This document shows, one piece after another, positions 20,666 through 32,899 of a stretch of 56,629 bases of DNA. The translations under genes were made by a program, and so were the position numbers. The notes below the pieces were generated by a model. It was not told the DNA's origin and made no database searches. It saw nothing but the letters and a program-made list of their open reading frames with translations. How positions within the stretch are numbered: the first letter of the stretch is position 1; every line of letters starts with the position of its first letter. The stretch is from Bacillota bacterium (lineage in GTDB: Bacteria > Bacillota > Sulfobacillia > RBS10-35 > JAJYVN01), in NCBI GenBank assembly GCA_021806565.1, contig JAJZXK010000007.1:1-56629 (forward strand). The letters are read 5' to 3'.

Positions 20666-21322
20666 TCAGCGGTAGAGGGCGACCCGGCGTTCCAGCATGG
20701 CGCCCAAGCGCGTCAGAGGCCAGTTCAGGAGGATGTAGGCGACGGCCGCCATGCCGTACAGCACCAGCGGTTGGGCGATGGTGTTCACGCCCAGCCGCAT
20801 GCGGTACATGATGTCGGGCACGCCGATGGTGTAGATCAGGGACGACGCCTTGAGTTGCAGGACGAGGAAACTGGTCAGCGCCGGCAGCACCACGGCGACG
20901 GCCTGGGGTAACACCACCCGCCGGAAGGTCGAACCTGCCGACAGGCCGAGGGCCCTGGCCGCCTCGCGCTGCCCGCCGGCCACGCCGGCGATGCCGGCCC
21001 GGAAGATCTCGACCGCGTAGGCCCCGCCGTACAGCGCCAACCAGATGAAGGCCGCCTGCATGGGGTGCAGGATGATGTGGAACTGCGTGAGTCCGAAGTA
21101 GATCACGAACAACTGCAGGATCTGCGGGGTGCCGCGCACGGTTTCCACATAGGCGGTGGCCAGGGCGACCAGCGGCCGGAGCGGCGCGAGCCGCGCGGCG
21201 GCCCCGATGACCCCGATCCCCAGGGCGACCGCCGTCGCGGCGGCCGTCACCTCGACGGTGACCACGGCCCCGCGCGCCAGGGATCCCGAATAGAGTTGCA
21301 CCACCTGCACTGCCGACGTCAT
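20666..21322 (-). CDS. Polar amino-acid/ectoine-type ABC permease
   Basis: An integral membrane subunit of 218 residues with about five helices, of the His/Glu/Gln/Arg/opine permease family. The EAA loop is REAARALGLSAGSTFRRVVLPQA, where the ATPase docks, and the segment YVETVRGTPQILQLFVIYFG is a family hallmark. Its ATG overlaps the stop of the ATPase gene (ATGA). It is the last gene of the minus-strand ectoine/transport cluster and ends 24 bases from the convergent spoIIQ stop; no clear terminator separates them. Confidence 0.9.
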   Translation of the reverse strand: MTSAVQVVQLYSGSLARGAVVTVEVTAAATAVALGIGVIGAAARLAPLRPLVALATAYVETVRGTPQILQLFVIYFGLTQFHIILHPMQAAFIWLALYGGAYAVEIFRAGIAGVAGGQREAARALGLSAGSTFRRVVLPQAVAVVLPALTSFLVLQLKASSLIYTIGVPDIMYRMRLGVNTIAQPLVLYGMAAVAYILLNWPLTRLGAMLERRVALYR

Positions 21323-22164
21323 GAACGCACCGCCTCGGAATCCGCCGCCGGCGGTGCGTCCGGCGCGTCGTCGCCCTCCTGCAGCAGCACGCGGCGCAGG
21401 AAGGAGCGGGTGCGCGGCTCGCGGGGTGACGTGAGCACCTCGCGGGCCGGCCCGCGTTCGACGATGCGGCGTTCGGCCATGAACACGACCGTGTCCGCCA
21501 CGTCGCGCGCAAACGACATCTCATGGGTCGCCAGCAGCATGGTCATGCCTTCCTCGGCCAACTCGCGGATGACGGCCAGGACGTCGCCGACGAGCTCCGG
21601 GTCGAGCATCGAGGTCGGTTCGTCGAACAGCATCACCTGCGGCTGCATGGCCAGCGCGCGGCAGATGGCCACCCGCTGCTGCTGGCCGCCGGATAGGCGG
21701 CGCGGGTAGGCCGAGGCCTTGTCGCGCAGTCCGACGCGTCCCAGGAGTTCCATGGCCGTGGCCTCGGCCTCCGCCCGGGGGCGGTGCAGCACCTCGGTCG
21801 GCGCCAGCGTGATGTTCTGCAGCACGGTGAGGTGCGGGAAGAGGTTGAACGTCTGGAACACCATGCCGATGTGCGTGCGGATCTCCACCAGCGTCGCGTG
21901 CGGCGGCCGCCGGTATTCCGCTTCCCGGGTACCGGTGAGCCGGTGGCCGAGCACGTCGATGCGGCCGGATTCGAACGGCTGCAGGTAGTTGACGCAGCGC
22001 AGCAGGGTGCTCTTGCCGGCCCCACTGGGTCCGATCACCGCTACGACCTCTCCGGGCTGGATGTCGAGCGTGACATCCTCCAGCACGCTCTGTTTGGCGA
22101 AGCGTTTGCACAGACCGCGCACCGCGATCGCGGGTTCCCGGCCGGTCTCAGTGGCGTTGGGCAT
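21319..22164 (-). CDS. Polar amino-acid/ectoine-type ABC ATPase
   Basis: The 281-residue ATP-binding subunit. Walker A is GPSGAGKST near residues 45-53, the Q-loop lies in IGMVFQTFNLFPHLTV, the signature is LSGGQQQRVAICRAL, Walker B is VMLFDEPTSMLDPEL and the switch His is in LLATHEMSFA. It groups with GlnQ/HisP-type ATPases. The ATG lies 17 bases inside the end of the upstream permease gene, so the three subunits are translated together. Confidence 0.94.
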   Translation of the reverse strand: MPNATETGREPAIAVRGLCKRFAKQSVLEDVTLDIQPGEVVAVIGPSGAGKSTLLRCVNYLQPFESGRIDVLGHRLTGTREAEYRRPPHATLVEIRTHIGMVFQTFNLFPHLTVLQNITLAPTEVLHRPRAEAEATAMELLGRVGLRDKASAYPRRLSGGQQQRVAICRALAMQPQVMLFDEPTSMLDPELVGDVLAVIRELAEEGMTMLLATHEMSFARDVADTVVFMAERRIVERGPAREVLTSPREPRTRSFLRRVLLQEGDDAPDAPPAADSEAVRS

Positions 22165-22801
22165 AAGCGAACTCCCACCTCCGCAGAACGTGTGACAGCA
22201 GATAGCAGATGAGGAAATAGAGGATGCCGGCGAGGGCGAACATGTCCATGGGCAGGAAGGTGGTGCTGGCCGCGCCGTAGGCGTGGTACATCAGGTCGGC
22301 GACCGCGATGGTGACCACCAGCGAGGTGTCCTTCACGAGGTCGGCGGCCGCGTTCGTGGCCGGCGGCAGGATCGTCGTCACGGTCTGCGGGAGGATCACG
22401 CGGCGCATGGTGGTCGAGGGCGTCAGTCCCAGGGCCTGCGCCGCCTCGGTCTGGCCGCGCCCGACGCCCTCGATGCCGCCGCGGAAGATCTCGCCGTAGA
22501 TGGTGGCGTAAAAGATGCCAAGCACGCCGGACGCGGCGACGAACCCGGGCAGCACGATCCCGGCCTGCGGCAGGCCGTAGTACGCGAGGATGATCAGGAC
22601 CAGCACCGGGGTGGCGCGGATGATCTCGATGTAGGTGGACGCGACGCCGCGCAGCAGCCCCTGGCGCGACATGCGCGCCAGGGCCGTGAGAAAGCCGAGT
22701 GCGACGGCCAGCGCCAGGGCGGCCGCCGTCAGTTCCAGCGTGATGAGCGTGCCGTGTAGGAAGCGCGGCAGATAGTGCTCCCAGAGACGCAGGATCTTCA
22801 C
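22148..22801 (-). CDS. Polar amino-acid/ectoine-type ABC permease
   Basis: A second permease of 217 residues with the same family features: IEIIRATPVLVLIILAYYGLP and the EAA loop TEAAQALGLTPSTTMRRVIL. GTG 22801 is chosen because GGGAGGGG precedes it; the open frame continues 15 codons upstream without homology. Two different permeases with one ATPase and one binding protein is the EhuABCD composition. Confidence 0.9.
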   Translation of the reverse strand: MKILRLWEHYLPRFLHGTLITLELTAAALALAVALGFLTALARMSRQGLLRGVASTYIEIIRATPVLVLIILAYYGLPQAGIVLPGFVAASGVLGIFYATIYGEIFRGGIEGVGRGQTEAAQALGLTPSTTMRRVILPQTVTTILPPATNAAADLVKDTSLVVTIAVADLMYHAYGAASTTFLPMDMFALAGILYFLICYLLSHVLRRWEFAYAQRH

Positions 22802-22871
22802 GGGCCCCTCCCTACCCCCTGCGCGGGTCCCGGGGCCGGCTCGCACCGGCCCCGGGACCCGCGCGATGGAC

Positions 22872-23798
22872 TCAGCAGATGCCGGACAGGTACGAGGATC
22901 CGGTCAACGCGTAGTGGGTCAGATAGCTCTTGGTCTTGCCGGACTTGCAGGACTTGGCCAGGAAGGCGTTCAGCTTGGTGAGGAAGGTCTTGGAGTACGT
23001 ACCCTTGGCGACGGCGTAGAAGCCCTGCGGCTTCTGGGCGGCTCCGGCGGCCGAGCGCGGAATGGCCCCGAGCACCTTCAGGTGCAGGGACGGGTTCTGG
23101 TGCATGTCATACTGCGCGTACATGACGGGCTGGAACGCCGCCGCGACCCGTCCGGTGGAGACCGCCAGGAACGATTCCTCGGCGGTGCTGAAGCTCACGT
23201 TCGTCGCGTGCGGGATCTTCGGCACGAAGGCCTGTTCGGCACAGCCGCGGCAGGTGCCGATCCGCTTGCCCGAGAGCGCGGAGACGGAGTCCGTGGTCAC
23301 CTGGGGGTGTTGCGCGTTGACGATGACGCCGTCGACGTAGTTGAGGACCGGCTTGCTGAAGGCGACGATCTTGGCGCGCTTGGCCGTCTTGAAGATGTTG
23401 GCGGTGATGTCGGCGCGGTGCACGCTGACCGCCTGGATGGTGGCCGCGAACGGCAGCGCCTGGATGGAGAGGTGGGCGCCGAGGGAGTGGGCGAACGCCC
23501 CCAGCATGCTGATGTCGAAGCCTTCCCATTGCTTGGTCTTCTTGCTCTGGAACTCCAACGGCGCAAACGGGGCCAGAGCCACCGTCAACTTACGGGTCGA
23601 TTGCACCTTCTGCAGGAGCGTAGTGCCGCCCCCCCCCGCCGCGGCCGGCGTGGAGGTCTTGGTGGCGCCTGACGCGGCGGACGTCGCCGCCGAGTGAGTG
23701 CCGCCGGAAGGCGCGCTACCGGCAGCACACGCCGTCAGACCCAGGGCGAGTCCGACTGCGGCGAATCCGAGTAGCGGGCGTCGAAACTTCGAGTGCAT
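22872..23798 (-). CDS. ABC solute-binding lipoprotein (Ehu-like?)
   Basis: A 308-residue family 3 binding protein. The signal peptide (LLGFAAVGLALGLTAC) ends in an LTAC lipobox, followed by a Ser/Thr/Ala/Gly linker to about residue 48 and the two-lobed domain (LTVALAPFAPLEF; WEGFDISMLGAFAHSLG; GKRIGTC). It should be lipid-anchored and capture the ligand for the downstream permeases. The location directly after ectABCD suggests ectoine or hydroxyectoine, as in the Ehu system, but ligand residues cannot be assigned and an amino-acid ligand is possible. ATG 23798 has a GGAAAGG ribosome site. Confidence 0.88.
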   Translation of the reverse strand: MHSKFRRPLLGFAAVGLALGLTACAAGSAPSGGTHSAATSAASGATKTSTPAAAGGGGTTLLQKVQSTRKLTVALAPFAPLEFQSKKTKQWEGFDISMLGAFAHSLGAHLSIQALPFAATIQAVSVHRADITANIFKTAKRAKIVAFSKPVLNYVDGVIVNAQHPQVTTDSVSALSGKRIGTCRGCAEQAFVPKIPHATNVSFSTAEESFLAVSTGRVAAAFQPVMYAQYDMHQNPSLHLKVLGAIPRSAAGAAQKPQGFYAVAKGTYSKTFLTKLNAFLAKSCKSGKTKSYLTHYALTGSSYLSGIC

Positions 23799-23839
23799 GC
23801 GGGCATCCAACCTTTCCAGATCCCTTGATCCCTCGGTCT

Positions 23840-23861
23840 CTCGCTCCCGGCGGGCAGCGAG
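23840..23861 (-). promoter_or_regulatory. Stem-loop between ectD and binding-protein gene
   Basis: CTCGCT (23840-23845) pairs with AGCGAG (23856-23861), with a further CCC/GGG pairing inside across one unpaired base. It lies in the 82-base gap upstream of the binding-protein gene on the minus strand. It could protect the highly needed binding-protein mRNA or partly terminate the ect transcript; there is no T-tract. Confidence 0.4.
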
Positions 23862-23880
23862 CCTGCGCGGCCCTCCCCCT

Positions 23881-24780
23881 TCAGAGGGCGGCCGGGCGGC
23901 GGCAGGCGATGTGTTCGGGGCGCGGCGGCACATCCGCGAAGGGTGCACCGAGGGTGTTTTCCAGGCTGTTGTAGACCATGAAGACATTGCGCCGGGAAAG
24001 CGGTGTGATGTTGCTGTTGGACCCGTGCAGGATGTTGCATTCGAACATCAGCACCGAGCCGGCCGGACCGGTCGGCATGGCGATCCCGCATTGCTCGTAC
24101 ATGCGGGTCAAACTCTCTGGATCCGGCACCCCATACTCCTGGCGGCGCAGCGACTGCTTGTAGTGGTCGGCGGGGGTGCGCCCGACGCAGGAGATGTAGT
24201 GGTGGTGGGAGCCGGGCATCACCATCAGCGGGCCGTTATAGGGGAGGTTGTCGTCGAGCAGCAGCGAGAAACTGATCGCGCGCATGTGCGGCATGCCGTC
24301 TTCCACGTGCCAGGTCTCGAAGTCGGAATGCCAGTAGAACTCCTTGCCAATGAAGCCGGGCTTGAAGTTCACGCGCGACTGGTGGATGTAGACGTCCCCA
24401 CCCAGGATCTGACGGGCCACCCCGCACAGGCGGGGGTCGCGCGCCATCGCGGCGAAGACGGGCTGACCCTCGTGCACGGCGAAGATGGAGCGCACCGCCG
24501 TACCGCCGGGTTCGCGGACCATCTGCGGCTCCGAATCGTCCCTGGACGCCGCGCTCTGCATGCCGTCGAGCTCGCGCCGGAAGCGTTCGACCTCGGCCGG
24601 AGTGAAACGGCCCGGCCAGAAGAGGTACCCGTTCTTATCGAAGAAAGCCAGTTCGTCCGCCGACAGGGGGCCGGCGCGCAACTGGGCCTCGGTGGCGTGC
24701 AGCACCGGGTCCTGGCGCGGCGTGATGCCGGCCTGGTCGGCCACGCGGGAAGGATAGAGGTCGGTCGTCATCATGGTCAT
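23881..24780 (-). CDS. ectD: Ectoine 5-hydroxylase
   Basis: A Fe(II)/2-oxoglutarate dioxygenase that converts ectoine to 5-hydroxyectoine, 299 residues. The EctD signature around FYWHSDFETWHVEDGMPHMR gives the His and Asp iron ligands, and ILHGSNSNITPLSRRN supplies the second His and the 2-oxoglutarate Arg. Its ATG overlaps the ectC stop (ATGA). Confidence 0.97.
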   Translation of the reverse strand: MTMMTTDLYPSRVADQAGITPRQDPVLHATEAQLRAGPLSADELAFFDKNGYLFWPGRFTPAEVERFRRELDGMQSAASRDDSEPQMVREPGGTAVRSIFAVHEGQPVFAAMARDPRLCGVARQILGGDVYIHQSRVNFKPGFIGKEFYWHSDFETWHVEDGMPHMRAISFSLLLDDNLPYNGPLMVMPGSHHHYISCVGRTPADHYKQSLRRQEYGVPDPESLTRMYEQCGIAMPTGPAGSVLMFECNILHGSNSNITPLSRRNVFMVYNSLENTLGAPFADVPPRPEHIACRRPAAL

Positions 24781-25208
24781 GCACCCCTTTCAGCCTGGGC
24801 GGCGGGCGGATCCGTCCGCTGCGTGTCTCCCAGCAGTGGGTAGACGCCGTCCGCGTCATGCACCTCGGCGCCGGTGCATGCGGGCGTGAAGACGCAGATC
24901 AACCGCAACTCGCTGCGGGCCCGCACCCGGTGCCGCTCGTGGCCGTCCAGCACGTAGAGCGTCCCGGGGTTGAGCGGATACGTGCGGCCGTGGTCGAGAT
25001 CGATCAACTCTCCCTCGCCGCCGATGCAATACACCGACTCGACGTGGTGGCGATACCACATGGTCGTCTCGGTGCCGGCCCGTATCACCGTGTCGTGCAG
25101 GGAATACCCGCGGCCGTCGTCGCGCAGCAGCAACCGGCGGCTCGACCAAGTCTCGGCCCGCACATCGCGTTCACTGCCAACGATCGATTCCAGATGGCGC
25201 ACCAGCAT
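24777..25208 (-). CDS. ectC: L-ectoine synthase
   Basis: The 143-residue cupin that closes N-gamma-acetyl-diaminobutyrate to ectoine. It starts MLVRHLESIVGSERDV and holds the family motifs TTMWYRHHVESVYCIGGEGEL and LDGHERHRVRA that form the metal-binding barrel. ATG 25208 is preferred because AAGGAGG lies six bases upstream; the open frame extends further without homology. Confidence 0.97.
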   Translation of the reverse strand: MLVRHLESIVGSERDVRAETWSSRRLLLRDDGRGYSLHDTVIRAGTETTMWYRHHVESVYCIGGEGELIDLDHGRTYPLNPGTLYVLDGHERHRVRARSELRLICVFTPACTGAEVHDADGVYPLLGDTQRTDPPAAQAERGA

Positions 25209-25273
25209 CGGCATCCTCCTTCGCATCTGTCCTTGGCGCTTGCGGTACCTGCGCCGGGAAGTGGGGCGAAGGA

Positions 25274-26563
25274 TCAGGCGGTCTCGACGCACTGGCCGAC
25301 GGCTTCGGCCAGAATGTCGAAGCCTTCGCGCAGCACGTGGTCCGGGCCGGTCAGCGGCGGCAGGAGTTTGACGACCTCGGACGCCGGACCGGAGGTTTCT
25401 ACCAGCAGGCCGGCGGCAAAGGCGGCCGCGCAGATCTTCTGGGCCAGGGAGGGCGGCGTGCAGGCCAGGCCGAGGATCATGCCGCGGCCGCGTACCCCCT
25501 GGATCGCCCCGGAGTGGCGGGCGGCCAACTCCATCAGCCAGTCGGTCAGCATCCGGCTCCGGCGCGCCGTCGCTTCCTCAAGGGCCCCGTCCCGCCAGAA
25601 GGTCTCCAGGGCGGCACGCCCGGTGACGAACGCCGGGTTGTGGCCGCGGAAGGTGCCGTTGTGTTCGCCCGGTTCCCATGCGCGGTCCAGGTCCGGCCGG
25701 ATCAGCGTGACGGCCAGCGGCAGTCCGTAGCCGCTGAGCGACTTGGAGAGGCAGACGACGTCCGGGCGGATGCCGGCGACCTCGAAGCTGAAGAACCGCC
25801 CGGTGCGGCCGCAACCGGTCTGCACGTCGTCGACGATCAGAGGCAGGTCGCGGCCGCGGCAGATGCGCGCCAGGCGTCGCAGCCAGGCCACACTGGCCGT
25901 GGCAAGTCCCCCCTCGCCCTGCACGGTTTCGCAGATGACGCCGGCCGGCGCGGGCATGCCGCTGCCGCCGTCGTCCAGGAACCGCTCCAGGTAGTCGAGG
26001 GATTCCCCGCCCTCCGGGAGGAAGCCCGCGAACGGCACGGAGACACTGCCCTGCAGCGGCATGCCGGCCCCGTTCCGCTTGAAGCGGTTGCCGCTCACCG
26101 CCAGCGACCCGATGGTCATGCCGTGGAAGGCGTTGGTGAAGGCGATGATGGTCTGGCGGCCGGTCACCTTGCGGGCGAGCTTCAGGGCGGCCTCGACGGC
26201 GTTGGTGCCCGTCGGGCCGGGGAACTGCACGCGGTATTCCAGCCCACGCGGTGCCAGCACCAGGTCGCGCAGCGCCTCCAGGAAGGCGCCCTTGGCCACC
26301 GTGGCCATGTCCAGGCTGTGGGTGATGCCGTCCGCCTCGAGGTATTCCAGCAGGTGTGCCTTGAGCGCCGGATGGTTGTGCCCGTAATTCAGGGCTCCGG
26401 CGCCTGAGAAAAAGTCCACATATCGTTGGCCGGCGGTGTCCCAGATATAGGGCCCTCTGGCCTTTGCGAACACGGTCGGGAAACTGCGCACATAACTGCG
26501 AACCTCGGATTCCATCGCTTCGATCACTTCGAGTTCGGGAAGGCGCTCGACCGCGGTCTGCAT
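25274..26563 (-). CDS. ectB: Diaminobutyrate-2-oxoglutarate transaminase
   Basis: A PLP-dependent class III aminotransferase of 429 residues that turns aspartate semialdehyde into diaminobutyrate, the first committed step of ectoine synthesis. GPTGTNAVEAALKLARK, LIVDDVQTGCGRTG and the PLP lysine in VVCLSKSLSGYGLPLA are clear. ATG 26563 has AGGAGGT ten bases upstream. A 65-base gap separates it from ectC. Confidence 0.96.
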   Translation of the reverse strand: MQTAVERLPELEVIEAMESEVRSYVRSFPTVFAKARGPYIWDTAGQRYVDFFSGAGALNYGHNHPALKAHLLEYLEADGITHSLDMATVAKGAFLEALRDLVLAPRGLEYRVQFPGPTGTNAVEAALKLARKVTGRQTIIAFTNAFHGMTIGSLAVSGNRFKRNGAGMPLQGSVSVPFAGFLPEGGESLDYLERFLDDGGSGMPAPAGVICETVQGEGGLATASVAWLRRLARICRGRDLPLIVDDVQTGCGRTGRFFSFEVAGIRPDVVCLSKSLSGYGLPLAVTLIRPDLDRAWEPGEHNGTFRGHNPAFVTGRAALETFWRDGALEEATARRSRMLTDWLMELAARHSGAIQGVRGRGMILGLACTPPSLAQKICAAAFAAGLLVETSGPASEVVKLLPPLTGPDHVLREGFDILAEAVGQCVETA

Positions 26564-26654
26564 CAGGGCATCGACCTCCTCATCGCCAGATGTGCGTGGC
26601 GGTATACGGTGGACACCACCTCCTTGAGATTCCCCGGACGCCGCGCGGCCCGGC

Positions 26655-27191
26655 CTACGCGCCGCGCGACCCGTCCAGCGGACCGACGCGCAGCCAATCC
26701 TCGCCCTCATGGGCGCCCGGGAAGCAGCCCGGATCGAACCCTGGGTGGATGTGCAGCGGGGCGCCGCGTTCGGCGGCCAGGCGCTGGAAGAGGGCCCGGG
26801 ATGCCTGGTTTTTGGGTCCCACCGTTGCTTCGATGAAGCGGACCTCCGCCGTCGCGGGGTGGGTTAGGACAAAGCGCAGCAATCGGCCGGCGACGCCGCG
26901 CCGCCGCGCCGCCGCTGCGACCGCGACTTGCCAGACGAAGAGCGATTCCGGGTGCGCCGCCGGGGTCAGCGCGGAGAGAAAGCCCACCACGCCGAGCCCC
27001 GGCGCCTCCGCCACCGCGCAGGTCTCGCGCAGGTGGGAACACAGCAGCAGATAGCAGTATGAGGAGTTGAGGTCCAGCGGGGGACAGGCGCCTACCAGCC
27101 GCCACACCGCAACCGCATCCGACCGGTCGGGCATGCGGATGTCGATCGCCTCCGCCTTGCGTGCATCGTTCTGGTGGGTCGTGCTCGGCAT
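26655..27191 (-). CDS. ectA: Diaminobutyrate acetyltransferase
   Basis: A GNAT-fold enzyme of 178 residues that acetylates diaminobutyrate. CPPLDLNSSYCYLLLC is the EctA signature, and the acetyl-CoA loop is ARRRGVAGRLL. ATG 27191 fits the usual length and has GGGGG upstream. The gene lies first in the cluster, 97 bases or so downstream of a good promoter, and 91 bases before ectB. Confidence 0.95.
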   Translation of the reverse strand: MPSTTHQNDARKAEAIDIRMPDRSDAVAVWRLVGACPPLDLNSSYCYLLLCSHLRETCAVAEAPGLGVVGFLSALTPAAHPESLFVWQVAVAAAARRRGVAGRLLRFVLTHPATAEVRFIEATVGPKNQASRALFQRLAAERGAPLHIHPGFDPGCFPGAHEGEDWLRVGPLDGSRGA

Positions 27192-27252
27192 CAAGGCAAA
27201 ACCCCCATGAAAACATGGATTATCAAGGTGGCGACCCATACGCAGCCGCACC

Positions 27253-27263
27253 GAGATAATCTC
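27253..27263. promoter_or_regulatory. Palindrome in ectA leader
   Basis: GAGATAATCTC is a perfect 11-base palindrome with a central A, about 25-35 bases downstream of the predicted ectA transcription start. It is a plausible repressor or osmotic-regulator site; no regulator gene such as ectR is in the window. Confidence 0.35.
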
Positions 27264-27294
27264 TCGAAGATCGTATGTTCCGCGGCGCATCGTT

Positions 27295-27324
27295 ATTATA
27301 TGCCACAAGCACTCGGAGTTGCAA
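27295..27324 (-). promoter_or_regulatory. Sigma-A promoter of the ectABCD-transporter cluster
   Basis: On the minus strand TTGCAA (27324-27319) and a perfect TATAAT (27300-27295) are 18 bases apart. Transcription should begin near 27288, leaving a leader of about 97 bases before ectA. A CATGATCATG palindrome (27326-27335) lies directly upstream of the -35, a good place for an activator or repressor. The region is much richer in A and T than its surroundings. Confidence 0.82.
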
Positions 27325-27722
27325 GCATGATCATGTCGAAGCACGCAGTCATCGTGCGAAGTATTAGGAAGAAGCCGCCTCTACTTCTCAACGGTACACG
27401 AGACGGACACTCGCATCAACGCATACAGCGGTGTCTCTTCGTGAGCTACGTGAGGATGGATGCAGCAAATCAGCCGTTTCACAGCGTATATCCGGACTGA
27501 GGGCGTCAGGTGGCTTCTGGAGGATCCGGTGGGGCTCCGCTGGTGCGGTGTGGCAGATACGATGGTTCATGATCGGCGCGAGAAGGCGGTCGCGGAGATG
27601 CGACACCAGGTTCCGCGGCGTTTCGCGTCCCGGGCGGTGTCCCCTTGCGTCGCGTGGGTCTGCCATCTTGCGGCTGCACATATCGATTGGCTAAACGTTT
27701 CGGAGGGACGGGGGGCGAGCCC

Positions 27723-27753
27723 GTGAAGGACCATATCTGGAAGCGGGTTCTGG
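27723..27753 (+). pseudogene. spoIIID: spoIIID, 5' segment (codons 1-10) cut off by the element
   Basis: GTG 27723 begins the reading VKDHIWKRVLE, matching the strongly conserved SpoIIID N-terminus (MKDYIxxRVLEV...). After that the frame runs into unrelated sequence of the inserted element and stops at 27920. GGGGGCGAG (27710-27718) is a suitable ribosome site. The missing continuation EVSRYISRTKSTVR lies 4.9 kb downstream at 32642. I treat this as one gene interrupted rather than decayed, because joining the two ends in frame gives a full-length 95-residue SpoIIID. Confidence 0.88.
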
Positions 27754-27780
27754 AAAGGAGTGCTCCGCAGCCCCAACGCC
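27734..27780. repeat. attL: left junction of the spoIIID element
   Basis: The left junction contains CGGGTtcTGGA (27744-27754), matching CGGGTcaTGGA at the right junction in 9 of 11 positions. Element-side arm 27766-27780 is the inverted partner (13 of 15 bases) of 32616-32630. The two arms are each 12.5 to 26.5 bases from the GA of TGGA, so GA at 27753-27754 is the best crossover dinucleotide. Confidence 0.8.
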
Positions 27781-27883
27781 CGGGGCACGTTGCGGCTGCG
27801 CGCCCGGGGGGCAGGACCGCGGACGCCGCGCGCGGAATGCCGACGCCTCGAAGTATGTCGACCGACCTTGGAGGAATGCGCGC

Positions 27884-28675
27884 GTGCCAGGTTTGGCGGT
27901 GCACCTGGAGACCCACCTGAAGGATCGTCCGTTCGGTGAGCGGTGGCGGACCGGCAAGGCCCTGGGGTTTGCCGCCTGTGAGTTCGTGTGGCGTGGCAAG
28001 GACATGGCGGAGGCCGCCGCCCTGCGGTCCGAGACGGGGATGGCGGTGACCTGCATGGGCGGGACCACCGGCGGTGCACCCGGACACGGCAGGCCCGCGC
28101 TGGTCGCCCCGCAGGACCGCGAGCAACTTGCCTCGGATCTGGACGCCGCGGTCGCGGCGGCGCACGCGGTGGACTGCCCCTTTCTTGTGATGGTCCCGGG
28201 CGACCACGTGGAGGGATGGTCCGAGGCGGAGCACCACGCGGTGGTGGTGGCCTCCCTGCGTGCGGTGGTGCCGCAGCTCGAGGCCGCCGGCGTGACCGCG
28301 CTACTCGAGCCGCTCAACACCCGCGTCAATCACCCCACCTGCTGGTGCGATACGTCGACCAAGGCGTTCGCGGTCGTGGAGGCCGTGGGGTCGCGCTCCG
28401 TCAGGGTGCTGTATGACCTGTACCACATGAAGGTGATGGGAGACGACCTGCAGGCCGTCGTGCGCGCCCACCACCCGTTGATCGGCTACTACCACGTCGC
28501 TGGCGTGCCGGGCCGCCATGAGCCGACCGGCGGCGAGGTGGACTTCAGGCCGGTGCTCGATACCATCGAGGCGACGGGATACCGGGGCTTCGTCGGCCTG
28601 GAATACAGCCCGTCCATCGCGCCGGAGGACTCCCTGCGCCTGGTGCGCGGCGCGTTTCCGGACCCGGCGTCCTGA
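27884..28675 (+). CDS. Hydroxypyruvate-isomerase-like TIM-barrel protein
   Basis: A 263-residue sugar isomerase/epimerase of the xylose-isomerase-like TIM-barrel superfamily, closest in motifs to Hyi: LLEPLNTRVNHP, VLYDLYHMKVMGDDL, HVAGVPGRHEPTGGEVDF and GYRGFVGLEYSP, with the metal-binding Glu, Asp, His and Glu expected at the strand ends. Substrate is unknown. GTG 27884 follows GGAGGA by eight bases. The start overlaps the runaway frame of the truncated spoIIID 5' end. It is the first cargo gene of the element and may be cotranscribed with the next two. Confidence 0.85.
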   Translation: MPGLAVHLETHLKDRPFGERWRTGKALGFAACEFVWRGKDMAEAAALRSETGMAVTCMGGTTGGAPGHGRPALVAPQDREQLASDLDAAVAAAHAVDCPFLVMVPGDHVEGWSEAEHHAVVVASLRAVVPQLEAAGVTALLEPLNTRVNHPTCWCDTSTKAFAVVEAVGSRSVRVLYDLYHMKVMGDDLQAVVRAHHPLIGYYHVAGVPGRHEPTGGEVDFRPVLDTIEATGYRGFVGLEYSPSIAPEDSLRLVRGAFPDPAS

Positions 28676-28835
28676 CCCCGCGGCCCAAGCACCCCGGAGG
28701 TCTGCCCCCCGTCCGTCCGGCCTGGGTGCCTGAGGTGGCGCCCCGACGGCGGATGTGCATCGCAAAGCAAGGGAGGGAGGCGCGGCCCCATCCCGCGGCG
28801 GAAGCCGGGGCATCGGCGGACCGCGCCGAGATCGG

Positions 28836-29672
28836 GTGAAGGTGTTGATCACAGGGGCGGGCGGCAGCCTTGGTGCCGGCCTCGCCGCGAGCCTCGCGCC
28901 CAGGCATGCCCTGCGCCTGTCCGATGTCCGGGACGTGGAGACGCCGCACGCGTTCGTCCGGGCGGACATCCGGCGGCGCGAGGAGGTCCTGCCCCTGGCC
29001 GCCGGGATGGACGTCGTCGTGCACACGCCGGCCTGGCATGGCATCCACCTGCGCTCGCACGGGCAGGGCGATTTCTGGGATGTGAACGTCGACGGGACGT
29101 TCAACGTCCTGCAGTCCGTGGTGGCCCACGGCGTCCGGCGGGTTGTGTGGATCTCCAGCATGTCGGTGCGCGACCGGAACAACATCTACGGACTCAGCAA
29201 GGTGATCGGCGAGGAACTCTGCGCGTTCTACCACCGCGGCGCCGGTGTCCGCTTCATCCTCCTGCGCCCGGCCGACTTCACGCCCTACCCGAACCGCAGG
29301 CGCTACGGGGAACGGTTGTTGCGCGGCGGGGTCGACCGCCGGGACGTCGTCGCGGCGGCGGAACTGGCTGTGGAACACGCGGATGCGGCCTTCGAGGCGT
29401 TGCCGGTCCTGCGCCAGGACCCGTTCACCGAACAGGACGTGAACGCGTGGGCCGCCGATCCGGCGGCGGTCCTGGAACGCCACCGCCCGGGCGCAGCCGA
29501 CCTCGTGCGGCGCTACGCGTTGAGCCTCCCCGAGCGCATCGGCCGCCCCGATCCCGTCGAGGCGAGGGCGTGCCTCGGCTACCGGCCCCGGTACAACTTC
29601 TTCTCCTTCCTGGAAGACCTCGCCGCCCACGACGCGGCCGGGGATGCGGAAGCCTGGCTTTCCGGGGTCTGA
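28836..29672 (+). CDS. NAD-dependent epimerase/dehydratase (extended SDR)
   Basis: A 278-residue extended short-chain dehydrogenase. VKVLITGAGGSLGAGLA gives the GxxGxxG cofactor loop; the catalytic set is the Ser in VVWISSMSV and YGLSK (YxxxK). It resembles nucleotide-sugar 4-epimerases or uronate dehydrogenases, but the C-terminal substrate lobe is divergent. GTG 28836 fits the Rossmann start; the ribosome site is weak, and an upstream in-frame GTG at 28755 cannot be excluded. Second cargo gene of the element. Confidence 0.82.
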   Translation: MKVLITGAGGSLGAGLAASLAPRHALRLSDVRDVETPHAFVRADIRRREEVLPLAAGMDVVVHTPAWHGIHLRSHGQGDFWDVNVDGTFNVLQSVVAHGVRRVVWISSMSVRDRNNIYGLSKVIGEELCAFYHRGAGVRFILLRPADFTPYPNRRRYGERLLRGGVDRRDVVAAAELAVEHADAAFEALPVLRQDPFTEQDVNAWAADPAAVLERHRPGAADLVRRYALSLPERIGRPDPVEARACLGYRPRYNFFSFLEDLAAHDAAGDAEAWLSGV

Positions 29673-29789
29673 TACGCGGCCGGGCGCGGCGGATCCGCCC
29701 GTGCCCGCCGGGTCGGCTCCCCCGCCCGGGCACGAGCAGCATGGCGGCGTGCCCCCGGTCGGGATGCGCGGCCGCCGGCGGGGGGGGGG

Positions 29790-30833
29790 ATGATCGTGGC
29801 CGACGCCGCCTTTGGCGCCTTCCTCGCCGACTGGCGCGCCGTGCTGCAGTTGCGCCTGGACGAGGCAGTGGGCCGCATCACGGCCGTCCCGTCCGTCTGC
29901 GGCGTCCTGGTCGCCGGCAGTCTTGGCGGTGGAGCACCCTGGCCGCTGTCGGACATCGACCTCCTGCCGCTGTATCGCGACGGGGAGGCGGAGGCGGGCC
30001 GCGCGGCGGTCGAGGCGGTACGGCGCGCCCTGCTGGACCGCTGGCTGGCCGAAGGCGTGCGTACCCCGCTGGATGTGGGCTGGCTCTCTTTCGAGCAGCG
30101 GGAGGTGGAAGCGGCGGTCGCCGATCCGCCGGCGGCCCTGATCGGCCGCTTCGACGACGCGCGCTGGCTGCACGCGGCGGATAAGGCCTTTGGCGGTTAC
30201 GGCGCCGGCGCCGGCTCCGGGGGGCGCCTCGCGTCGGCGTTCGCCGCCTGGCTGACGGCGGCGCGCTTCCTGCCCGAGGTCGCGTCCGACCGCGTCCGCC
30301 GCGCGCTACGGGAGCGGGAGCGCGCCTGGCGCGCCCTGGAGGCGGCGCTGAGCGCAGATGGCGACGGTGATGCCGGGGGGGCTGCGGCGCGCCTGGCCGA
30401 TTTCGCCGCTGCCTCCCTGGGGTGGGCCATGGCCGCCTGGGGGGTGCGGGACAACTCCTACGCCCGCATCCTGACCCGCTTCGAGCGCGCCGCCGGGGAG
30501 CGGGGCCGCACAGACCTTGTGGACGCCGTGCATGAAGCGTTCGACCTGCGGCCGGACCGTTGCCAGGCACGCCTCGCGCTGGCGCCTCCCTGGTTGCGCG
30601 AGCGCGTCGACCGGCAGTGGGCCGCCCGCGTAGCGGTTGCTGAGCGGGTCGCTGCGGACGGTAACCGGCGAGATGTGCTCCACGTGTTCAGCGATCAGGA
30701 ACGGCGGCACGGGGCGGCGCCGTTTGCCGCCTGGGTCGGTCTGGACGCCCCGCCGCAGGTTGCGGCCCCGCGCGCGCGGGGCCTGCGCGCCGCGGTGCAG
30801 GCAGCGCACGCGTATGGGCCCCCGCAGGGGTAG
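29790..30833 (+). CDS. Nucleotidyltransferase-domain protein
   Basis: A 347-residue protein with a DNA-polymerase-beta-like nucleotidyltransferase core: VAGSLGGGAPWPLSDIDLLPLY has the GS...DxD pattern, and LDVGWLSFEQREVE supplies a third acidic strand. The C-terminal two thirds are helical and Ala/Arg-rich with no known motif. It could adenylylate a small molecule, RNA or protein. The ATG is directly preceded by a run of ten G (29780-29789), which serves as ribosome site but is also slippage-prone. Third cargo gene of the spoIIID element. Confidence 0.7.
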   Translation: MIVADAAFGAFLADWRAVLQLRLDEAVGRITAVPSVCGVLVAGSLGGGAPWPLSDIDLLPLYRDGEAEAGRAAVEAVRRALLDRWLAEGVRTPLDVGWLSFEQREVEAAVADPPAALIGRFDDARWLHAADKAFGGYGAGAGSGGRLASAFAAWLTAARFLPEVASDRVRRALRERERAWRALEAALSADGDGDAGGAAARLADFAAASLGWAMAAWGVRDNSYARILTRFERAAGERGRTDLVDAVHEAFDLRPDRCQARLALAPPWLRERVDRQWAARVAVAERVAADGNRRDVLHVFSDQERRHGAAPFAAWVGLDAPPQVAAPRARGLRAAVQAAHAYGPPQG

Positions 30834-30899
30834 GCACCCCCTGTCCCCCGATGGAGGCGGCGTCCCGCCCCGGCGCCGTCCTTTCCAAGCCGTCCGGCG

Positions 30900-30907
30900 C
30901 ATAGCCT
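30900..30907 (+). promoter_or_regulatory. Weak sigma-E/K-like -10 before recombinase genes
   Basis: CATAGCCT shares CATA and the final T with the mother-cell sigma-E -10 (CATACAnT) and fits CATAnnnT of sigma-K. No good -35 is visible. Position is suitable, about 30 bases before the small gene at 30939. Reported only because mother-cell control is expected for an excision gene. Confidence 0.22.
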
Positions 30908-30938
30908 GTCCGCGATCGGCGGTTGGGGGGGACCATGC

Positions 30939-31109
30939 ATGGCGCGACCGTCGGAGATCCGGGTGGTCGTCAGGGCGTCCTTGGCGGACAAGGTTCGGGC
31001 CTTGCAGGGCCTGCGCGCGCTGTATGGGCGGCGGTGGCGCGAACGGCTCGCGGCGCCGGCGCCCGGGGAGGGTTCGGGTGGGCGGAGCCGGCCGCCCGCC
31101 CGGAACTAG
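30939..31109 (+). CDS. Small basic protein before recombinase (candidate excision factor)
   Basis: A 56-codon frame: MARPSEIRVVVRASLADKV followed by an Arg-rich helical segment and a Gly/Pro/Arg tail. GGTTGGGGGGG upstream serves as ribosome site. Its stop lies 11 bases before the chosen recombinase start, so the two are probably cotranslated. I recognise no family. Size, charge and position recall small recombination directionality factors such as SprB of SPbeta (58 residues), which switch large serine recombinases to excision. That role is an inference from context only. Confidence 0.5.
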   Translation: MARPSEIRVVVRASLADKVRALQGLRALYGRRWRERLAAPAPGEGSGGRSRPPARN

Positions 31110-31120
31110 GGGTGGCGCCT

Positions 31121-32563
31121 GTGGGCGAGGTCGCCGCCATCTACGCGCGTGTCAGCACGGATGAGCAGGCCGAGCACGGGACCAGCCTGGACGAGCAGGT
31201 GCGCCTCTGCCGCCAGCGGTTGCAGCCCGGGCAGGAGGCGCGCGTCTTCATCGATGCCGGTCTGAGCGGCACGACCCTGGAGCGGCCGCAGTTACAGGCC
31301 GTTGTGGACGGGGCGCGGCGCGGTATGTTCGGCCGCCTGATCGCCTATGATCCGGATCGGCTGTCGCGCAACGCCGCCCACCTGCTGCTTTTGGTGGACG
31401 AACTGCGGGCGGCCGGGATCGTGGTCGAGTTCGTCAACTTCACGACCGACCTTTCGCCCGACGGCCGCCTCCTGTTCACGGTCCGGGGCGCGATCAGCGA
31501 GTTCGAAGCGCATCGCATCAAGCAGCGCCTCTATTCCGGCAAGCAGGCCCGGGCGCGGGCCAACCAGGTGTCGGCCGGCACGTGCATTTACGGCTATCGC
31601 CTCGACCGCGTTACCAAGCAGTGGGAGTTGGAACCCCGCGAGGCACAGGTGGTGCGCCTGCTGTTCGAGTGGGCGGCGGAGGCAGGGACCTGGGAGTTGG
31701 CGCGGCGCCTGAACGCCGATGAGGTGCCCGCCCGCTTCGGGGGCCGCTGGAGTCCGAGCAGTGTCGCCGGGATCCTGCGCAACCCGACGTACCTGGGCCG
31801 CATGCCGCAAATGGGCGGCCTCGGGTCGGTCCCCGTGCCGGTGCTCGTGAACCCGGAGCAGTTCGAGCGGGTGCAGGCCGCCCGCACGGCGCGCCTGACG
31901 CGGCCGACCGGCCGGCCGACGCACCCGTACCTGCTCACCGGACGCTTGCGGTGTGCCGCGTGCGGCCGCTCCATGTGCGGCGGGTACGGCCGGCCCACGC
32001 GTTCCGGTGTGACCACCTATTACGGCTGTCCGGCGCGCGCGAAGCCGGCCCCGGACGGTGAACGCTGCGGCAACCGCTATTGGCGCAGCGACCTGATGGA
32101 CGCCCAGGTGTGGCGGCACGTGTTTGCCTGCGTCGGCGATGCCGAGGCGATGCGGGCCGTCTGTGCCGAGCCGGTCGGGGACGTGCGGCGGATGGAGGAC
32201 CTGGACTCCCAACTGCGGGCGATCGAACGCGACCGCGGCCGCCTGCGGCGGGAGTGGGAGCGGGTGCTGGGCGCCTTCCGCCGTGGACTGATCGCTGAGC
32301 GGGACCTGGAGGCGCAGCAGCGGGAATTGGGCGCCGAGGCCCGGGTCCTGGACCAGCGTCAGGAAGCGGTGGACGCGCAGTGCCGGGCGGCGGCACCGCA
32401 GGCGGAGGGCGGCGGCGAGGCGGTGCTCCGCAGGATGCTCGCGGACGCGCCGCGCCTGGAGGGCGCGCAAGTCCGCCGCGACGTGCTGGCCGCCCTCGGA
32501 GTGCGCGCCAGCGTCTCCCCGTCTGGGGAGATCGAGGTGCGCCTCGGTGTTCCGGAATCCTGA
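31121..32563 (+). CDS. Large serine recombinase of the spoIIID element
   Basis: A 480-residue site-specific recombinase. The N-terminal resolvase domain begins VAAIYARVSTDEQ with catalytic Ser12, then DRLSRNAAHLLLLVDEL and the long E-helix; a recombinase domain follows (GYRLDRVTKQ...FGGRWSPSSVAGILRNPTYLG), then a zinc ribbon with CAACGRSMCGG and GERCGNRYW, and a C-terminal coiled coil. This layout matches phage integrases and SpoIVCA. GTG 31121 has AGGGGTGG upstream; GTG 31112 is an alternative. It ends 78 bases from the right junction, the usual place for an integrase gene. Confidence 0.95.
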   Translation: MGEVAAIYARVSTDEQAEHGTSLDEQVRLCRQRLQPGQEARVFIDAGLSGTTLERPQLQAVVDGARRGMFGRLIAYDPDRLSRNAAHLLLLVDELRAAGIVVEFVNFTTDLSPDGRLLFTVRGAISEFEAHRIKQRLYSGKQARARANQVSAGTCIYGYRLDRVTKQWELEPREAQVVRLLFEWAAEAGTWELARRLNADEVPARFGGRWSPSSVAGILRNPTYLGRMPQMGGLGSVPVPVLVNPEQFERVQAARTARLTRPTGRPTHPYLLTGRLRCAACGRSMCGGYGRPTRSGVTTYYGCPARAKPAPDGERCGNRYWRSDLMDAQVWRHVFACVGDAEAMRAVCAEPVGDVRRMEDLDSQLRAIERDRGRLRREWERVLGAFRRGLIAERDLEAQQRELGAEARVLDQRQEAVDAQCRAAAPQAEGGGEAVLRRMLADAPRLEGAQVRRDVLAALGVRASVSPSGEIEVRLGVPES

Positions 32564-32615
32564 GCGGGGGCGATTCCAGACCTCCGCCCCGCCGCCGGGC
32601 GCGGTCCCCGCCTGA

Positions 32616-32662
32616 GGCGTTGCGGCCGCGTCCGGGTCATGGAGGTGAGCCGTTACATCTCG
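32616..32662. repeat. attR: right junction of the spoIIID element
   Basis: CGGGTcaTGGA (32633-32643) is the counterpart of the left junction. The element-side arm GGCGTTGCGGCCGCG (32616-32630) is the inverted partner of 27766-27780. On the chromosomal side, spoIIID coding sequence begins, and GA at 32642-32643 is the predicted crossover pair. Confidence 0.8.
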
Positions 32663-32899
32663 CGCACCAAGTCGACTGTGCGCGAGACGGCCAAGGCTTT
32701 CGGGGTCAGCAAGTCGACCGTCCACAAAGACGTCACGGAGCGGCTTCCCAAGTTGAATCGCGACCTTGCCGCCCGCGTCAAGAAGGTGTTGGACACCAAC
32801 AAGGCGGAGCGCCATCTCCGGGGGGGGGAGGCGACGCGGCGCAAATACATGGACGAGGGCCAGCCCATGCCGTCCGAGGGGATGCCGCTGCTGCACTGA
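32639..32899 (+). pseudogene. spoIIID: spoIIID, main segment lacking its first codons
   Basis: SpoIIID is the mother-cell transcription regulator that acts between sigma-E and sigma-K. The segment reads EVSRYISRTKSTVRETAK, then the helix-turn-helix AFGVSKSTVHKDVTERLP and the basic tail AERHLRGGEATRRKYM, all diagnostic. An ATG at 32639 gives 86 residues, but it replaces only codon 10 and no ribosome site precedes it. The first helix (MKDHIWKRVL) lies 4.9 kb upstream. After excision the protein would be 95 residues, close to the 93 of Bacillus subtilis. A run of nine G (32820-32828) falls in the RGGE codons. mbl, which follows in Bacillus, is absent. Confidence 0.93.

What the first reader, a model, noticed from the sequence alone, without database searches (positions are those of the whole stretch)
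27723..32899. spoIIID is split by a 4.9-kb skin-like element
Seen: codons reading MKDHIWKRVL at 27723-27752 and EVSRYISRTKSTVR... from 32642 are the two parts of one SpoIIID, in the same orientation and compatible frame. Between them is a compact set of five same-strand genes ending in a large serine recombinase. Joining at the shared TGGA core gives a 95-residue SpoIIID with the normal N-terminal helix. Known: sigK (skin) and spsM (SPbeta) in Bacillus are interrupted by elements that serine recombinases excise in the mother cell. Inference: spoIIID here is rebuilt the same way, making the sigma-E to sigma-K stage depend on DNA excision. I know of no described element in spoIIID.
Basis: partly seen in the sequence, partly recalled or inferred. 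Interest (0 to 1): 0.97.

Follow-up and report, generated by a model that had tools for sequence, protein, structure and literature searches.

The report
Self-excising DNA switch splitting spoIIID
In several groups of little-known bacteria that carry spore-forming genes, the gene for the sporulation regulator SpoIIID is cut in two by a small DNA element with its own recombinase, which is predicted to cut the element out, most likely in the mother cell, so that the gene would become whole only while a spore is being made.

Summary
spoIIID is split after codon 10 by a 4,889-bp element (27753-32641) ending in an intact large serine recombinase. The pieces share TGGA and join into a 95-aa SpoIIID. 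No second spoIIID was found in the genome (92.6% complete). In the class, 14 of 128 genomes with a SpoIIID match lack the N-terminal piece, in three families, cut at the same codon, each with a related recombinase beside a spoIIID piece. Two more genomes show only the 5' piece plus recombinase. One genome of the window's family has the uninterrupted gene and no such recombinase. The smallest elements are 1.7-2.2 kb. Deduced circle junctions are dyad-symmetric about a GA core in the two families tested. In the window's family a conserved 56-65-aa ORF precedes the recombinase in 5 of 5 elements (candidate directionality factor), with a mother-cell-type promoter-like site upstream. sigK is also split in this genome, so two excisions are probably needed. 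Excision itself was not observed; mother-cell timing is inferred. It works like skin, SPbeta/spsM and gin; six paper searches listed no element in spoIIID.

The parts
27658..27687 (+). promoter-like site of spoIIID, left with the 5' piece (GTCTGC ... CATATCGAT)
   Evidence: a CATAT box at this place is seen by eye in all 6 family genomes read; promoter identity is inference
27723..27752 (+). 5' piece of spoIIID, codons 1-10
27725..27785 (+). left junction (attL); GA core 27753-27754; conserved element arm to the right
27753..32641 (+). intervening element, 4,889 bp
27884..28675 (+). cargo: hydroxypyruvate isomerase-like TIM-barrel protein
   Evidence: PF01261 4.5e-34; TIGR03234 162 bits, below its cut-off of 353
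28836..29672 (+). cargo: NAD-dependent epimerase/dehydratase-like protein
   Evidence: PF01370 8.4e-17
29790..30833 (+). cargo: 347-aa protein without family match
   Evidence: no Pfam, NCBIfam or PHROG match at E 0.01
30878..30907 (+). promoter-like site GTC...CATAGCCT before the small ORF and recombinase
   Evidence: a like site in 5 of 5 family elements
30939..31109 (+). 56-aa ORF, candidate recombination directionality factor
   Evidence: conserved in 5 of 5 family elements; 9 database relatives
31121..32563 (+). large serine recombinase, 480 aa
   Evidence: PF00239, PF07508, PF13408; relatives beside split spoIIID
32612..32670 (+). right junction (attR); GA core 32642-32643
32639..32899 (+). 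3' piece of spoIIID (own part from Glu codon at 32642)
   Evidence: PF12116 and TIGR02844; 2l0k from chain residue 11

Best explanation
spoIIID is split after codon 10 by a 4,889-bp element whose own large serine recombinase is predicted to excise it at a GA core, most likely in the mother cell, which would rejoin spoIIID into one 95-codon reading frame. Predicted order: sigma-E starts both the spoIIID promoter, left with the 5' piece, and the small-ORF/recombinase operon. The recombinase, turned to excision by the small protein, recombines attL with attR. The circle with its metabolic cargo is lost from a cell that will die, while the forespore keeps the split copy. SpoIIID would then appear only after this step, so the sigma-E to sigma-K relay would wait for DNA excision. 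In this genome sigK is split as well, so a second excision should follow. Shown: the split, the joined frame, the shared site, the recombinase association, the dyad att sites, the kept 5' piece, the uninterrupted relative. Inferred: excision, the directionality factor, promoter identity and mother-cell timing.
For: Joined frame of 95 aa in 4 of 4 family genomes where both pieces were read, 84 aa in 5 of 5 of the second family, and open in G055. One spoIIID only in the own genome. G002 uninterrupted and without this recombinase. 14 of 128 class genomes with a SpoIIID match lack the N-terminus, each with a related recombinase beside a piece (in G060 only part of it at a contig end). Both pieces with the recombinase between them on one contig in 8 genomes. 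Circle-junction dyad about G|A: 57 of 96 over four genomes, 0 of 5,000 shuffles reaching it; 65 against 42 for the next centre in the second family. 5'-piece pattern once in each of 6 family genomes and in 9 of 11 of the other families. Conserved ORF before the recombinase in 5 of 5 at the place of skr in skin (PMC6957869 passages). CATANNNT 37-41 bases before it in 4 of 5, a GTC...CATANNNT site in 5 of 5. spoIVA present.
Against: No excised junction or circle was seen; the two viral-contig pattern scans were empty and no read data were available. All genomes are drafts. In G004 and G056 no 3' piece, in G060 and G063 no 5' piece was found. The dyad is not distinct in G003 (9 of 24, tied with other centres), and no shuffle was run for the second family. 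The 5' pieces were found with a pattern that fixes KDHIWKR, so their identity is partly built in. The -35 has no ATA of sigma-E (one search gives ATA for sigma-E, AC for sigma-K). The small ORF was not found in the second family by a motif search. In the window itself the 3' piece happens to begin with ATG.
Confidence: 0.88

Rival explanations
1. The 3' piece is a working short SpoIIID started at the junction, and the 5' piece is a remnant.
For: In the window, G001, G003 and G005 the junction supplies an ATG in frame, and database gene calls use it.
Against: In G057 there is no ATG, GTG or TTG between the cut and the stop or 25-codon limit upstream; in G058 the nearest is 22 codons away. By eye no ribosome-site-like sequence stands before the junction start of the window's family. 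The 5' piece keeps its start, ribosome-site region and coding letters while the sequence beyond the cut drifts.
Confidence: 0.04
2. spoIIID is broken by a selfish element and these lineages no longer need it.
For: Serine integrases do insert in genes; G006 of the same order has no proper SpoIIID match.
Against: Both pieces and an open recombinase frame are kept at the same codon in three families; spoIVA is present in the window's genome.
Confidence: 0.04
3. Excision is real but not tied to the mother cell: a heritable on/off switch or an element that also moves between cells.
For: Uninterrupted SpoIIIDs close to split ones exist (P0002 against P0028; G002); cargo differs between elements.
Against: Mother-cell-type promoter-like sites before the recombinase operon in 5 of 5 family elements; all known elements of this sort that I read about act in the mother cell; smallest elements have no visible transfer genes.
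Confidence: 0.04
4. Assembly artefact (chimeric contig).
For: All family members are draft assemblies.
Against: The same order of parts on single contigs in 8 genomes, including two named public records; the window's short form is listed from 4 contigs, the longest 88,028 bases.
Confidence: 0.005

Closest known systems
skin element in sigK with SpoIVCA and Skr (B. subtilis; PMC6957869 passages) and skinCd (C. difficile; PMC5025042 passages)
   Same: Sporulation gene in two same-strand pieces, large serine recombinase in the element, small ORF directly before it, mother-cell-type promoter-like site.
   Different: Target is spoIIID, upstream of sigK; recombinases form a clade apart from the sigK recombinases of the same genomes; no phage genes in the window's element; elements down to 1.7-2.2 kb.
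gin element in gerE of B. cereus ATCC10987 (PMC5595907 passages)
   Same: Non-phage element inside a small mother-cell regulator gene, serine recombinase plus small factor.
   Different: gin is 28.6 kb with three serine recombinases; here one recombinase, in three families at one site.
SPbeta in spsM, SprA/SprB (PMC4191935, PMC6957869: listing and passages)
   Same: Recombinase plus small directionality factor; gene rebuilt in the mother cell.
   Different: SPbeta is an active phage; recombinase here is only remotely alike (PDB 9dxh, E 0.00058).
fdxN element / XisF of heterocyst-forming cyanobacteria (function recalled)
   Same: Excision from a terminal cell by a serine recombinase; the NCBIfam XisF model matches (79.9 bits).
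   Different: Far below the model's cut-off of 375 bits; another phylum and target.

Membership tests
Sporulation gene-intervening (skin-type) elements | Sporulation gene in two same-strand pieces that join in frame | tested here: met
Sporulation gene-intervening (skin-type) elements | Site-specific recombinase gene inside the element | tested here: met
Sporulation gene-intervening (skin-type) elements | Uninterrupted gene in relatives | tested here: met
   G002 and 113 of 128 class genomes with a match start at residue 1-3
Sporulation gene-intervening (skin-type) elements | Directionality factor encoded in the element | tested here: inconclusive
   conserved small ORF in 5 of 5 family elements, function unproven; not found in the second family by motif
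Sporulation gene-intervening (skin-type) elements | Expression by a mother-cell sigma factor | tested here: inconclusive
   sites like the sigma-E/sigma-K -10, -35 without ATA
Sporulation gene-intervening (skin-type) elements | Excision in the mother cell during sporulation | not testable with these tools
   no reads, no culture
Large serine recombinases (serine integrases) | Resolvase, Recombinase and zinc-ribbon domains | tested here: met
   PF00239 1.3e-31, PF07508 3.3e-13, PF13408 2e-10
Large serine recombinases (serine integrases) | Dyad-symmetric attP around a 2-bp core | tested here: met
   not distinct in G003
Orthologues of the sigK (skin) recombinases of these genomes | Groups with them in a tree | tested here: not met
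   separate clades (quick tree of 86 rows, 6 of 26 loci without a usable frame left out)
XisF (fdxN element recombinase) | NCBIfam cut-off | tested here: not met
   79.9 of 375 bits
Prophage-derived elements | Phage structural or replication genes in the element | tested here: not met
   of five window ORFs only the recombinase matches a phage function; two cargo ORFs match an epimerase family and one of unknown function

The most novel reading that the evidence does not exclude
In this class the mother-cell cascade itself is built on programmed DNA excision. An old, domesticated, about 2-kb self-excising cassette sits in spoIIID across several families, and in some genera (window genome, G003) a second cassette sits in sigK, so that spore formation runs through two serial, irreversible excisions: spoIIID first, driven by sigma-E alone, then sigK, driven with the help of SpoIIID. 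Some lineages have turned the spoIIID cassette into a cargo bay for metabolic genes that the spore line keeps and the mother cell throws away.
Probability: 0.5. Interest if true: 0.93.

Novelty: new variant of a known kind. Interest (0 to 1): 0.9.

Why it matters
Excision elements in sporulation genes are mostly known as scattered prophage-like insertions. Here one sits at a single codon of the regulator between sigma-E and sigma-K, in three families, and in its smallest form is hardly more than a recombinase and its ends. That points to a maintained developmental switch and makes the old question, parasite or timer, directly testable: G002 lacks the spoIIID element while sister genera keep it, and the sigK split varies independently of it. 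It also means that gene callers report a truncated SpoIIID in these genomes.

Tried and rejected
Short-form SpoIIID: rejected on start codons and the kept 5' piece. Second intact spoIIID: none found. Phage origin: viral contigs gave only 4 remote loci, 24-34% identity; a circle-junction pattern and a 5'-piece pattern gave 0. First survey of 80 public loci: I passed L044 and L080 as continuous because their frame runs on upstream; two searches showed a recombinase and the 5' piece there, so that reading was wrong. A fold search of the small protein was not run: the model is one helix, mean pLDDT 75, pTM 0.40. The fixed-column comparison understates the CATAT box because of small indels. The Fisher test (p 7e-17; 13, 1, 0, 113) ignores relatedness, uses a cut-off chosen afterwards and leaves out G006, so I do not lean on it. 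The promoter windows and pattern were set after seeing four of the sites.
Full report
What is there. The window carries GTG-KDHIWKRVL at 27723-27752 and (ATG)EVSRYIS...stop at 32639-32899 on the same strand. The 3' piece matches SpoIIID from profile position 9 on (PF12116 5.7e-36; TIGR02844 124.8 bits, over the cut-off of 111.5). Against the solved SpoIIID 2l0k it aligns from chain residue 11. Joined at the shared TGGA, the two give a 95-residue SpoIIID with the spacing of the uninterrupted gene of G002. The only SpoIIID match in the window's own genome is this one (4.0 Mb, 213 contigs, 92.6% complete). The genome has spoIVA (716 bits) and several sigma-factor genes, so it very probably sporulates.

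The element. Between the pieces lie five same-strand ORFs: a hydroxypyruvate isomerase-like protein, an epimerase-like protein, a 347-aa protein without family, a 56-aa ORF and a 480-aa large serine recombinase with its three domains. PHROGs finds a phage function only in the recombinase, and viral contigs hold only 4 remote relatives (24-34% identity). GC of the element is 0.735, against 0.688 and 0.712 in the 10 kb on either side.

Relatives in the same family. Five of six family genomes have a SpoIIID match. G002 is uninterrupted. G001, G003 and G005 begin at the same codon as the window and carry the recombinase at 59-68% identity beside it. G004 has the 5' piece and the recombinase on one contig, but no 3' piece was found. 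The 5'-piece pattern occurs exactly once in each of the six genomes, 0 for the control pattern. In G003 both pieces and the recombinase stand on one contig, element 7,450 bp. In G001 and G005 the pieces lie on two contigs; if those two are its ends, the G001 element is at least 16.8 kb (12,790 + 4,073 bases).

Wider class. Of 154 class genomes, 128 have a match. Fourteen align only from query residue 6-9: G000, G001, G003, G005; G055; and G057-G065. G006 has only weak matches. The other 113 start at residue 1-3. I first took the family of G057-G065 for a divergent N-terminus, but a related recombinase stands just upstream, and the 5' piece lies about 2.1 kb upstream in the public records L044 and L080. 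The 5'-piece pattern is found in 9 of 11 genomes of G055-G065, not in G060 and G063. Five elements read whole are 2,069-2,157 bp. G055, of a third family, has a 1,747-bp element with the recombinase on the other strand. Both pieces with the recombinase between them on one contig are seen in 8 genomes: G000, G003, G055, G058, G061, G062, G064, G065. A strict class search for the recombinase (at most 10 candidates scored per genome) gives 15 genomes at E below 1e-72. Thirteen of these are among the fourteen; G004 and G056 have the 5' piece beside the recombinase. The fourteenth, G060, has part of a recombinase at a contig end. The next six genomes (E 4.8e-71 to 2.5e-58) are not split: five have a SpoIIID starting at residue 1 and G020 has no match. 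I placed this cut after seeing the table.

Attachment sites. In the window's family the element arm right of the left junction is alike in the five genera, and the arm left of the right junction carries GTTG or a like motif. The deduced circle junction is dyad-symmetric about G|A of TGGA: 57 of 96 arm positions pair over four genomes; the shuffle mean of the best centre is 34, and 0 of 5,000 shuffles reach 57. By genome it is 15 (G000), 9 (G003), 16 (G005) and 17 (G001) of 24; in G003 other centres score as high. In the second family, where GA and few neighbours are shared, the same centre leads, 65 against 42 for the next (five genomes, no shuffle run). A GA core puts the crossover at 27753-27754 and 32642-32643, in the Glu codon 11.

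The orphan 5' piece. Eleven 5' pieces read in split genomes encode VKDHIWKR; codons 1-8 are 95.8% identical pairwise, against 35% and 49% in the two 30-base blocks before them. The pieces were found with a pattern that fixes KDHIWKR, so this figure is partly built in. Not built in are that the pattern occurs once per genome, that it lies on the outer side of the recombinase, and that the sequence before it is kept (67% for the ribosome-site block in the window's family, against 26-31% further up). In the window's family identity falls from 92% in the coding stretch to 57% in the element arm and 26-30% beyond. A ten-codon orphan with its start signals is hard to explain unless it is used. The short form cannot be general: G057 has no start codon between the cut and the limit of the search upstream, and in G058 the nearest is 22 codons away. 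By eye no ribosome-site-like sequence stands before the junction ATG of the window's family. Among the best 120 database proteins listed of 3,527, 15 lack the N-terminal piece by my sorting; a few of these may be cut by contig ends.

Control of excision. In 5 of 5 family elements a 56-65-aa ORF stands before the recombinase, with invariant A13, D17, K18, A21, L25, Y29 and R36. Its 9 database relatives include two whose longest contigs, 33,113 and 6,176 bases, have the lengths listed for recombinase relatives P0122 and P0137. It has no Pfam match (5 members); the window's own has no PHROG match. It models as one helix. Its place is that of skr, the 64-aa directionality factor of skin, just upstream of and overlapping spoIVCA (passages of PMC6957869). 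A CATANNNT box stands 37-41 bases before it in 4 of 5 (0 of 20,000 shuffles reach 4). A GTC...CATANNNT site stands upstream in all five, in G003 171 bases before the ORF; these are 5 of the 10 hits in 295 kb scanned, and another of the ten lies before the sigK 5' piece. [quoted passage not shown] our -35 has no ATA, so I claim only a mother-cell-type -10. spoIIID is a sigma-E target in B. subtilis (abstract of PMC517825 in listings), and a sigma-E-type promoter is shown for it in C. difficile (figure legend passage of PMC5025042).

sigK. The own genome also has sigK in two pieces on two contigs, C79 (profile 3-116, with a recombinase on the contig) and C34 (111-225), cut at CIEN|EILMHL, the skin site of B. 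subtilis as I recall it. G002 is cut at the same place. G003 shows the 3' piece next to a recombinase; its 5' piece was not listed. G001, G004 and G005 run on over that site. So the two splits vary independently; G000 has both and G003 very probably. The sigK recombinases form a clade apart from the 40-row clade that holds the five spoIIID recombinases of the window's family and database relatives (quick tree; those of the second family are not in it).

Cargo. It differs between elements: sugar enzymes here; an HlyD/ABC/MacB-type exporter in G003; GH76, DeoC-type aldolase, Gfo/Idh/MocA, PfkB and GH38 proteins in G001. In the 2.1-kb elements I looked only for frames of 300 codons or more and for the small-ORF motif, and saw no convincing second gene.

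Known or new. The targets named in the papers I saw are sigK, spsM, spoVFB, gerE and yabG (passages of PMC10747680, and PMC5595907). Six full-text searches listed no paper on an element inside spoIIID; most subscription papers and preprints are not in that library. I rate it a new variant of a known kind: it works like skin, at a new target further up the cascade, with compact non-phage elements in three families. Excision, timing and the role of the small protein remain to be shown. The class includes a genome whose single contig has the length listed for Caldinitratiruptor microaerophilus (G130), so these are relatives of Symbiobacteriaceae.

Noticed in passing
G000 contigs C79 (L196) and C34 (L197); G002 C49/C193; G003 C40: sigK is split at CIEN|EILMHL in the window's genome and G002, and by its 3' piece in G003, with large serine recombinases on C79, C193 and C40.
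   Followed up: partly
G009 C16/C17, G010 C8/C285: sigK falls into two stretches at another point, profile 145/143, next to a serine recombinase: a possible second kind of sigK element.
   Followed up: no
G058 contigs C9, C28, C43, C61, C73: Besides one full sigK-type match, several partial C-terminal sigK-like stretches; unexplained.
   Followed up: no
G004 C293 (L176): sigK runs over the CIEN site but its C-terminus differs after SRIE.
   Followed up: no
window 21319-27344: By reading, the genes before spoIIID look like an ectoine uptake and synthesis cluster; no family search was run on them.
   Followed up: no
L088 18486-18908: In G003 the gene before the spoIIID 5' piece reads like a SpoIIQ-type M23 peptidase (by eye); in the window other genes lie there.
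   Followed up: no
P0026 and P0033: Two database proteins agree in the SpoIIID part but have different junction arms (ARILEVSRY, MEVSRY), as if two element versions sit at one site in near-identical hosts.
   Followed up: no
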